NCBI GenBank assembly: GCA_030595125.1
Contig: JAUVDV010000019.1
Span: 1-64,000, forward strand
Direction: 5' to 3'
Source: Deltaproteobacteria bacterium
GTDB lineage: Bacteria; Myxococcota_A; Polyangia; JAAYKL01
DNA length: 64,000 nucleotides
The notes beneath the pieces were generated by a model, which did not search any database, was not told the DNA's origin, and worked only from the letters and a program-made list of their open reading frames with translations. Within the stretch, counting starts at the first letter, position 1. Each line of letters starts with the position of its first letter. Positions 556-4,537 of this stretch are shown here, piece by piece. The position numbers were made by a program, and so were the translations under genes.

Positions 556-620
556 ACAGGGCCAGGCGAAAAGTATCGTTGAAGATGTGATAGATCTTCA
601 GGGCAGGCCTCGCCCCTGAT

Positions 621-631
621 ATGGAACGACC
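621..631 (+). repeat. Left subterminal inverted repeat of the IS
   Basis: ATGGAACGACC; exact reverse complement of 2180-2190. It lies one T inside the CTGA that probably marks the left recombination core. Confidence 0.8.
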
Positions 632-685
632 TGTCAAGTGTTTACCTCTGTGGCCACATCGTTCTCCTGATTTCTTCTTTATTGT

Positions 686-896
686 CAAAGCAGAAAGGGA
701 AGCAGTCAAGAAGGTAACAACGACGGTTGATCAGTCTGATATTCGTGGATCGAACCCGAAGGAACGCCGACATGCTCAATCTCCGTCGGGAGCTGCCTCT
801 GACTACTTGCGTGAATCCGGGCCGAAACCCTGTCACATAGGGGCGCCGAGGGTTCTCCAATCCGAGTGTCCCTTGACTGCTTCCCCTTCTGCTCTG
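686..896 (-). ncRNA. Candidate bridge RNA of the IS element
   Basis: Read on the minus strand (transposase sense), 896-872 pairs with 710-686 as a 25-bp stem containing two G.U pairs and closing a 161-nt loop. Inside, in 5'-3' order, lie four short segments. CGCCCCU (845-839) is identical to the host left flank plus CT core (611-617). AGUAGUCAGA (807-798) is complementary to TCTGACTACT, the right junction (2191-2200). CGUUCCUUC (766-758) matches the right element end CGTTCCATTC with one base missing. AUAUCAG (742-736) is complementary to CTGATAT at the left element end (616-622). Hairpins can form between the members of each pair. This is the guide layout known for IS621-type bridge RNAs; location downstream of the transposase is the IS1111 arrangement. 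Transcript ends are not known. Confidence 0.72.
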
Positions 897-940
897 GCCC
901 CAATATTCAATCATTGTTTCGTTGTGTTCCCGTTTTTTGG

Positions 941-2098
941 CTATGCCGCGTTTTCCATCTTCGCCTCTTGTTTGGTCTCGACATAAACCGCTATCGACCA
1001 GATAAATCCGACCAATTCTCGGCCTACCGCAGTAATAGCAACTTGCTTGGTTTTGCCGCCGGCCAGCAAAGCTCGGTATCTTCCGCAAAGACGGTGCTGG
1101 GCCTTCCATGCGATTTCTTTTACCTCGGCGACAAGCTCAGTGCTGATTTCATTCTGGCACTTTTGTATTCTGAGATTCACCGATGGATTGTATCGATAAC
1201 TCCATGCCGCCTCTATCATCAGCCTTCTGAGGTGACTGTTTCCCGTTTTTGTAATTCCCCCCTGTTTCTTTTTCCCCGGACCACCAGATGAGTACTCGCT
1301 CGGCACGATGCCCATGTACGCCATCAACTGAGTAGGACTTGAAAACCGGGAGAAATTTCCGACTTCCGCAACAGTGCCGACAGCTGTGATCTTCGCGACC
1401 CCGCGCAGCAACTGCAAGGCGGAAACGACTTCTCGAATGTGCTCGGGGCTCTCCTCTATAGCGGTATCTATCGATGACTCCAGCGCCTTCAGCCTATCTC
1501 TCTGATGCTCTACCTCGTGGAGATAATCCGTGAAAACAACTTCATGAGACTTCTCCTTGAAACTGAGCGTCTTTATCCAGGCGATGTGCTTGAGGGTCCA
1601 ATTCGTCATCTTCGTCGGTTTGTAAATTCCGCTTCTGAGAAGAAACTTGCCCAACCGATGCCGTGCCGCTCGCTGGTCCTTCCTGGCCGCTTCTCTGGCT
1701 CTCACCAAATCTCTCAAGGCTTCGTGACAGGGATCCGGAACCCAAACGGATGTCAATTCTCCGGCTCTATAAAGCCTAGCCAGCTTGATGGCATCTCGGC
1801 GATCAGTCTTGACCCTGTCGCCAGTCTTGCGAGGAATCAAAGTAGGCGCGATCACCTCGCAAGTGACATTCATTCCAACCATTATCCAGTAAAGTGTGTA
1901 CCCGCACGGACCCGCTTCGTAACAAACTTGGAGCTCGCGCTTCTTCTGAAGCTTCCTCACCAGCTTGCGTATCGACGGAGGTTTGTTCGCAACAATTCCC
2001 AGTGAACGGACCTCACCGTTTCTCCCTGATTCAGCGACAGCAACAGCAATTGTGTCTGCGTGAACATCCAGACCGACAAATAGTGTATTCTTCTTCAT
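941..2098 (-). CDS. IS110-family transposase (DEDD + Transposase_20)
   Basis: At 385 residues this is normal full length. The N-terminal RuvC-like DEDD domain starts GLDVHADT (Asp11), with Glu61 in CYEAGP and the pair Asp99/Asp102 in KTDRRDA. The C-terminal Transposase_20 part contains LRGVAKITAVGTVAEVGNF and the SEYSSGG...GGITKTGN block that carries the recombinase serine (Ser270 or Ser271). All catalytic positions and both domains are intact, so the element may be active. The ribosome-binding site GAAGGGAG, about 6 bases before the ATG, lies in the closing stem of a leader structure at 2099-2184. In known relatives this protein works with a structured noncoding RNA from its own element that selects target and donor DNA. 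Confidence 0.93.
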   Translation of the reverse strand: MKKNTLFVGLDVHADTIAVAVAESGRNGEVRSLGIVANKPPSIRKLVRKLQKKRELQVCYEAGPCGYTLYWIMVGMNVTCEVIAPTLIPRKTGDRVKTDRRDAIKLARLYRAGELTSVWVPDPCHEALRDLVRAREAARKDQRAARHRLGKFLLRSGIYKPTKMTNWTLKHIAWIKTLSFKEKSHEVVFTDYLHEVEHQRDRLKALESSIDTAIEESPEHIREVVSALQLLRGVAKITAVGTVAEVGNFSRFSSPTQLMAYMGIVPSEYSSGGPGKKKQGGITKTGNSHLRRLMIEAAWSYRYNPSVNLRIQKCQNEISTELVAEVKEIAWKAQHRLCGRYRALLAGGKTKQVAITAVGRELVGFIWSIAVYVETKQEAKMENAA

Positions 2099-2184
2099 GA
2101 CCGGCTCCCTTCGTATGTAGCTCTGCGCTACGTTTCTTCTCCGATCCGCAGTGTAACCTACGACACTGCGAACGGAGCCGGTCG
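2099..2184 (-). promoter_or_regulatory. Structured leader that buries the transposase ribosome-binding site
   Basis: In the minus-strand transcript the first and last 15 bases pair (GACCGGCTCCGTTCG with CGAAGGGAGCCGGTC, one G.G mismatch). Inside are two further hairpins, CGCAGTGT/ACACTGCG with an 8-base loop and GTAGC/GCTAC with a 5-base loop, giving a cloverleaf-like 86-nt element ending at the ATG. The Shine-Dalgarno GGGAG is in the 3' strand of the outer stem and would be masked, limiting translation from read-through transcripts. The fold is read by eye; the regulatory role is inferred. Confidence 0.6.
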
Positions 2185-2190
2185 TTCCAT
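2180..2190 (-). repeat. Right subterminal inverted repeat of the IS
   Basis: GGTCGTTCCAT; exact reverse complement of 621-631. It is followed by T and then CTGA, mirroring the left end. Confidence 0.8.
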
Positions 2191-2198
2191 TCTGACTA

Positions 2199-3627: not shown

Positions 3628-3969
3628 ATGACAGGTTCAAGAGTGCTGAAAATAATAGGCTGGGTTTTTCTGGGAGTGGCCATAGCCGTTGCCCTGGGGC
3701 TCGTGCTGGGCTTCGGGTTGATGTGGTTGTGGAACTGGCTGATGCCGGCTCTCTTCGGTTTGCCGGTAATCACGTACTGGCAGGCCGTCGGTCTGTTCGT
3801 TCTGTGTCATCTCCTGTTCAAGGGGCACCATCACCATGGAGGAGGGGACAAGGACGGAGAGTGCAGTCCGCCGTGGAAGAAGCATCACGACAGCAACCCC
3901 CTCGCGCGGAAAGTTCATGGGCTCGTCTGTAAAGATGGCGGTGACGTAGAGGATGCGGAGACCATTTGA
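3628..3969 (+). CDS. Small two-span membrane protein next to the ECF sigma factor
   Basis: A 113-residue protein with a hydrophobic segment at 8-33 and a second around 44-64, the linker reading MWLWNWLMPALFGLPVITYWQA. After the second span comes LFKGHHHHGGGDKDGE, a histidine cluster that could bind metal. AAAGGAGC precedes the ATG by 7 bases. The WNWLMP..FGLP.I..WQA pattern is one I associate with conserved small membrane proteins encoded beside sigma factors, but no biochemical role is known to me. Position suggests a link to the sigma factor's signal, for example as an anti-sigma or sensor component; that is inference. Confidence 0.7.
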   Translation: MTGSRVLKIIGWVFLGVAIAVALGLVLGFGLMWLWNWLMPALFGLPVITYWQAVGLFVLCHLLFKGHHHHGGGDKDGECSPPWKKHHDSNPLARKVHGLVCKDGGDVEDAETI

Positions 3970-4093
3970 GGCAGCTCCGCCCTCATCAGGGCGCGGCGCG
4001 AATGCGCGTCCCCTCCTCATTTTTTCCCCATTTTCTGCAGATAAGCACACCCAGTGGATAACGGCGTATAATAAATGGCAGGGAGGTGCTCCA

Positions 4094-4537
4094 ATGACTG
4101 ATGGGCTTGCGAACTCGGTGTGTTTTATCTGGTTGCCGGTTGTCTTGACTTTTTTTATTGGCGGATGCTCGGAATCACGCGCAAGCGGCGACGGTTCGGA
4201 CTCTGACAGCGACTCTGATACAGACACTGACACCGACTCCGACACGGATTCGGACACGGATTCCGACACGGATTCCGACACGGACACTGATTCTGACACC
4301 GACACCGATTCCGATACCGACACGGATACTGATACGGACACCAACACGGATACGGACACCGACACGGACACCGGTCCTGATACAGACACCGGTCCTGATA
4401 CCGACACCGGTACAGATACCGGCATCCCCACGGATCCCGCGTGCACTGCCATCAGCGGCATTTGCACCCCTTCCAGTATGATCTGCATCTGGTACGACAC
4501 CACCATGTGCGGGCCTGGATGGATGTGCTGCTGGTAG
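4094..4537 (+). CDS. Asp-Ser-Asp-Thr-repeat lipoprotein
   Basis: 147 residues. A signal peptide with hydrophobic core (CFIWLPVVLTFFIGG) leads to a lipobox cysteine, GGCSES, so a lipid-anchored exported protein is likely. About 75 residues of almost pure Asp alternating with Ser and Thr follow, then a short Cys-rich end (CTAISGICTPSSMICIW...CGPGWMCCW) with six cysteines that may form disulfides. GGGAGGTG lies 5 bases before the ATG, deciding the start. The acidic segment is a linker or calcium-binding spacer by analogy with similar tracts; the same tract type occurs in the genes at 18308 and 55543. Function unknown. Confidence 0.75.
   Translation: MTDGLANSVCFIWLPVVLTFFIGGCSESRASGDGSDSDSDSDTDTDTDSDTDSDTDSDTDSDTDTDSDTDTDSDTDTDTDTDTNTDTDTDTDTGPDTDTGPDTDTGTDTGIPTDPACTAISGICTPSSMICIWYDTTMCGPGWMCCW
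4196..4425 (+). repeat. Degenerate 6/12-bp tandem repeat encoding Asp-Ser/Asp-Thr
   Basis: Tandem GACACGGATTCC-like units with drifting third positions. The in-frame six-base periodicity means gain or loss of units keeps the reading frame, so the linker length can vary without inactivating the lipoprotein. Confidence 0.8.

What the first reader, a model, noticed from the sequence alone, without database searches (positions are those of the whole stretch)
616..2193. Readable bridge-RNA guides in the IS element match its own insertion site and ends
Seen: in the noncoding stretch downstream of an IS110-family transposase, in transposase sense, CGCCCCU (845-839) equals the host left flank plus core (611-617). 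AGUAGUCAGA (807-798) is complementary to TCTGACTACT at the right junction (2191-2200). CGUUCCUUC (766-758) resembles the right element end CGTTCCATTC with one base missing, and AUAUCAG (742-736) is complementary to the left element end CTGATAT (616-622). The order (left target, right target, left donor, right donor) and polarity are those known for the IS621 bridge RNA, all converging on a CT core. A 10-base and two 7-base exact matches in about 200 bases are unlikely by chance. Inferred: the predicted empty site joins CGCCC, CT and GACTACTACC.
Basis: partly seen in the sequence, partly recalled or inferred. Interest (0 to 1): 0.92.

Follow-up and report, generated by a model that had tools for sequence, protein, structure and literature searches.

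The report
RNA-guided insertion sequence (IS1111 group)
This is a jumping gene that carries its own guide RNA, whose short guide stretches match the spot where it landed and its own end; a sister genome still has the untouched landing site, so the match can be checked, but the kind of element is already known.

Summary
The strings are all present at the stated coordinates, and they are bridge-RNA (seekRNA) guides. The element is an intact IS110-superfamily element of the IS1111 group, with its RNA downstream of the transposase (about 690-893, minus strand). I delimited 103 related elements and tested 58 dereplicated ones: the two target guides track each element's own flanks and a third stretch tracks its own right end (diagonal scores 119, 67 and 80; permutation maxima 26, 29 and 27). 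The RNA fold is supported by 22 compensated pairs. A sister genome holds the empty site. The corrected element is 618-2197 (1580 bp), obeys the IS1111 7/3-bp rule, and only this register forms a TTGACA-N17-CAGAAT promoter when the ends join. The second guide's programmable part is AGU-AG; its UCAGA tail pairs inside the RNA stem. The claimed left-donor guide is an unsupported loop insertion. The landing site is the edge of a dispersed extragenic palindrome. This is a well-documented new member of a known kind.

The parts
618..2197 (-). The whole insertion sequence, 1580 bp, in transposase sense on the minus strand; CT core copies at 616-617 (flank) and 2196-2197 (element)
   Evidence: AG-N5-ATG...CAT-N3-AG rule in 103 relatives; empty site in G246
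941..2098 (-). DEDD transposase, 385 aa, uninterrupted
   Evidence: NF033542 253 bits, PF01548, PF02371; D11, E61, D99, D102 among the invariant columns
690..893 (-). Bridge (seek) RNA region, bounded by its long terminal stem
   Evidence: Fold z -4.1; covariance model 130.7 bits at 673-889, training set included; compensated pairs
839..845 (-). Target guide 1, CGCCC-CU, complementary to the right target half (transposase sense AG-GGGCG); 841-845 programmable, 839-840 core
   Evidence: Covariation 119.2 against a permutation maximum of 25.9; 5/5 match here
803..807 (-). Target guide 2, AGU-AG, same as the left target half; 805-807 programmable, 803-804 core
   Evidence: Covariation 67.1 against 29.2; 3/3 match here
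736..742 (-). Right-donor guide AUAUCAG, same as the element's own right end and core
   Evidence: Covariation 80.5 against 27.3
776..779 (-). Possible left-donor guide (UUGA); weak
   Evidence: Z 4.6 against a null maximum of 4.0 in the family; here only 3 Watson-Crick pairs and one wobble
621..631 (+). Subterminal inverted repeat, transposase 3' side (RE), ATGGAACGACC on the + strand
   Evidence: 11/11 inverted match with 2180-2190
2180..2190 (+). Subterminal inverted repeat, transposase 5' side (LE), GGTCGTTCCAT on the + strand
   Evidence: 11/11 inverted match with 621-631
632..637 (-). -35 box TTGACA of the circle-junction promoter; its -10 box CAGAAT lies at 2189-2194 (minus) and the two join at 17-bp spacing in the circle
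   Evidence: Spacing test over 61 elements
598..617 (+). Host palindrome edge forming one half of the target (TCAGGGCAGGCCTCGCCCCT); the other half continues at 2198
   Evidence: About eight dispersed palindrome copies in G246, all ending CGCCCCTAC

Best explanation
The feature at 618-2197 is an intact IS1111-group insertion sequence. Shown by sequence: the ends, the transposase gene, the RNA fold, guide-flank covariation and the empty site. Inferred from studied relatives: the DEDD transposase binds an RNA of about 204 nt (or a shorter processed form) made from the downstream noncoding region. One internal loop reads the target through two guides (CGCCC-CU for one half, AGU-AG for the other, sharing the AG/CT core), and a second region reads the element's own end through AUAUCAG. 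The excised element forms a circle whose joined ends create a promoter (TTGACA-N17-CAGAAT) for transposase and RNA. It then inserts at AGT-AG-GGGCG (transposase sense), the edge of an extragenic palindrome, without duplicating the target.
For: Covariation over 58 elements, also within clades; fold with 22 compensated pairs; empty site in sister genome G246 equal to the two flanks joined at the core; same guides at two G103 sites and six Azospirillum sites sharing the target; circle promoter only in the corrected register; 7/3-bp extensions, 11-bp subterminal repeats and downstream RNA as in PMC11187229.
Against: No RNA or transposition was measured. One empty site only for this locus, from another species. 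The transposase is 385 aa, longer than the 330-350 aa that PMC11187229 gives for IS1111-family transposases. Guide 2 has only three programmable bases. The left-donor guide is not resolved. The AG core received a small scoring bonus when ends were delimited.
Confidence: 0.94

Rival explanations
1. One reading: the original target was CGCCC-CT-GACTACT, AGUAGUCAGA reads ten target bases, and the sister genome lost 4 bp on its own.
For: AGUAGUCAGA matches the junction for 10 bases without a break; the empty site comes from another species with 91% identical flanking DNA.
Against: All the G246 palindrome copies of this type end CGCCCCTAC without GA. TCAGA-like extensions recur in relatives that sit in other targets. 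No promoter forms in this register. UCAGA is stem, not loop.
Confidence: 0.05
2. The matches are chance, or reflect shared ancestry between RNA and flanks, and the element does not use a guide RNA.
For: The strings are short; related elements can share targets and RNA by descent.
Confidence: 0.01

Closest known systems
IS1111-group insertion sequences with seekRNA (ISEc11, ISPa11, ISKpn4; PMC11187229)
   Same: Downstream RNA, 11-bp subterminal repeats, 7/3-bp extensions, top-strand complement first, circle-junction promoter; like ISPa11, which targets REP sequences, it sits in an extragenic palindrome
   Different: Longer transposase (385 aa against 330-350 aa); a hairpin-loop insertion in the RNA; its own target; no experiment done
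IS621 and IS110-group bridge RNA (PMC11208160)
   Same: DEDD recombinase; bispecific RNA with a target loop read on both strands and a shared two-base core; target in extragenic palindromes (IS621: REP)
   Different: RNA lies downstream, not upstream; guide order reversed relative to the transposase; long subterminal repeats; donor-reading bases not in a simple internal loop

Membership tests
IS1111 group | DEDD transposase with PF01548 and PF02371 domains | tested here: met
IS1111 group | Subterminal inverted repeats, usually 11-13 bp | tested here: met
   11/11 bp at 621-631 and 2180-2190
IS1111 group | Extensions of 7 bp (left) and 3 bp (right) outside the repeats | tested here: met
   AGTCAGA and ATC, fixed by the empty site
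IS1111 group | Long noncoding region with the guide RNA downstream of the transposase gene | tested here: met
IS1111 group | Top-strand complement lies 5' of the bottom-strand complement in the RNA | tested here: met
   845-839 precedes 807-803 in the RNA
IS1111 group | Transposase falls within the IS1111 branch of a reference tree | not tested
   No reference tree with named IS elements was built; the length (385 aa) is outside the 330-350 aa quoted for the family
IS1111 group | RNA bound by the transposase and needed for movement | not testable with these tools
   Needs an experiment
IS110 group (IS621 type) | Guide RNA upstream of the transposase, with short or no inverted repeats | tested here: not met
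   RNA downstream; 11-bp repeats

The most novel reading that the evidence does not exclude
Guide 2 may be a composite: besides the target half (AGU-AG) its 3' part (UCAGA) matches the element's own left extension, giving one continuous 10-base match across the junction. It might read the integrated junction during excision. Only the first extension base tracks across the family, mostly along clade lines, so this is weakly supported.
Probability: 0.12. Interest if true: 0.55.

Novelty: new member of a known kind. Interest (0 to 1): 0.36.

Why it matters
It is a naturally readable guide RNA with a confirmed empty site. It shows that the guide code of this group (about five plus three programmable bases around a two-base core) can be recovered from some 60 elements without experiments, and that an empty site together with the circle-junction promoter fixes the element's ends. 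The authors of PMC11187229 name wrongly recorded ends as a problem in element catalogues.

Tried and rejected
A single-protein scan of genome contigs found no relative; an alignment query worked. Rfam has no matching family at its gathering thresholds. The window element has one copy in its own genome, so its own multi-copy test was impossible; copies in G103 and Azospirillum stood in. TAGGGGCGA is not enriched in the window's genome (20 against 58 control matches), though it is in G162 (182 against 13), so the target word is not a high-copy repeat here.

Full report
Observation. The gene at 941-2098 (minus) is an uninterrupted 385-aa DEDD transposase of the IS110 superfamily. By sequence its only solved relatives found are the ISCro4 and IS621 transposases. 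The element has one copy in its genome, with a 43%-identical paralogue on another contig.

Ends. I collected related transposases and delimited 103 elements by their subterminal inverted repeats. A few of these assignments are doubtful; eight were set aside before the covariation analysis, and six more with misaligned RNA regions after it. Nearly all show AG-N5-ATG(repeat)...(repeat)CAT-N3-AG, which is the 7-bp/3-bp extension rule of IS1111 elements (PMC11187229). The scoring gave a small bonus for AG, so AG itself is not independent evidence, but the flanks are. Under this rule the window element is 618-2197, with core copies CT at 616-617 and 2196-2197.

Empty site. The gene beside the right junction has an 88%-identical orthologue in sister genome G246. 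There the sequence reads GGCAGGCCTCGCCCCTACTACC without the element, which is the window's flanks joined at the corrected core. The site is the edge of a palindrome, TCAGGGCGAGGCAGGCCTCGCCCCTAC, with about eight copies in G246 that share the CGCCCCTAC end. The 57%-identical relative L005 has the same guide 1 and sits in the same kind of repeat; an intact copy of that repeat lies just downstream and matches both its guides. Its own left flank is beyond the contig end.

Promoter register. In circles of IS1111 elements the joined ends make a promoter (PMC11187229). In the window it is TTGACA-N17-CAGAAT.

Guides. They remain when flanks are shuffled only within groups sharing end type (Z 11.1, 5.3 and 7.5; null maxima about 3.7). 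Guide 1 matches 4 or 5 of 5 programmable bases in 41 of 58 elements. Guide 2 tracks three bases plus the core; beyond the core only the first extension base tracks, mostly by clade.

Same guides at several sites. Two copies of one element in G103 share GAACGTG-AG-TTAGGCGGC while their outer flanks differ. Six insertions of one element on Azospirillum plasmids share a guide whose predicted target half is AACAGAAC; five have AACAG at the right junction and the sixth AACTGAAC, and five of six have CCT-AG on the left. Three of these share a longer right flank, so they are not six independent events.

Structure. The window RNA folds at -85.4 kcal/mol (z -4.1). The alignment of 36 homologues supports 29 pairs, 22 with changes on both sides, with 89.9% of cells paired against 39-46% when the partner is slid. 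Guide 1 and AAGUAG face each other in one internal loop. UCAGAGG is the closing stem, which is why UCAGA is not counted as guide. The covariance model gives one real hit in the window (130.7 bits), though the window was in its training set; it also finds relatives left out of training, such as L005.

Order. Read with the transposase, the top-strand complement comes first, as PMC11187229 reports for IS1111 elements and the reverse of the IS110 type.

Verdict. The reading of a bridge RNA from raw sequence was right in its main point. It was wrong by 4 bp in one junction, in the length of one guide, in one donor guide and in the subgroup. The system has been known since 2024 (PMC11187229, PMC11208160); this is a new, well-supported member. 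Expression and activity are not shown here.

Noticed in passing
L189:762-1087 (G155:C44): A 326-bp element with both IS1111-type ends and most of a bridge RNA (55.5 bits) but no transposase gene; no relative of the transposase was found in that genome. Its donor guide AUCCUAG equals its own variant right end, so it may be a non-autonomous guide-carrying element. Only one copy.
   Followed up: partly
L196:1420-1720 (G408:C261): A transposase-free bridge RNA (88 bits) whose left-end core reads TG instead of AG, with CA in guide 1, TG in guide 2 and TG in the donor guide: a coordinated change of the core in all three guides. The right end was not found.
   Followed up: partly
L089, L104, L115, L118, L132, L152, L154 and L212-L217: Elements whose right-junction core is AA while the left is AG; in those read, guide 1 then ends in UU instead of CU.
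   Followed up: partly
383-424 and 525-566: A 42-nt inverted repeat (90% complementary, 100 nt between arms) in the host stretch left of the element.
   Followed up: no
296-306: TGTAGGGGCGATG overlapping the stop codon of the left-hand gene: an unoccupied near-match to the target (TGT-AG-GGGCG).
   Followed up: no
3953-4537: An ORF with a long Ser-Asp/Thr-Asp repeat stretch after a hydrophobic, Cys-containing start, as in a surface lipoprotein.
   Followed up: no
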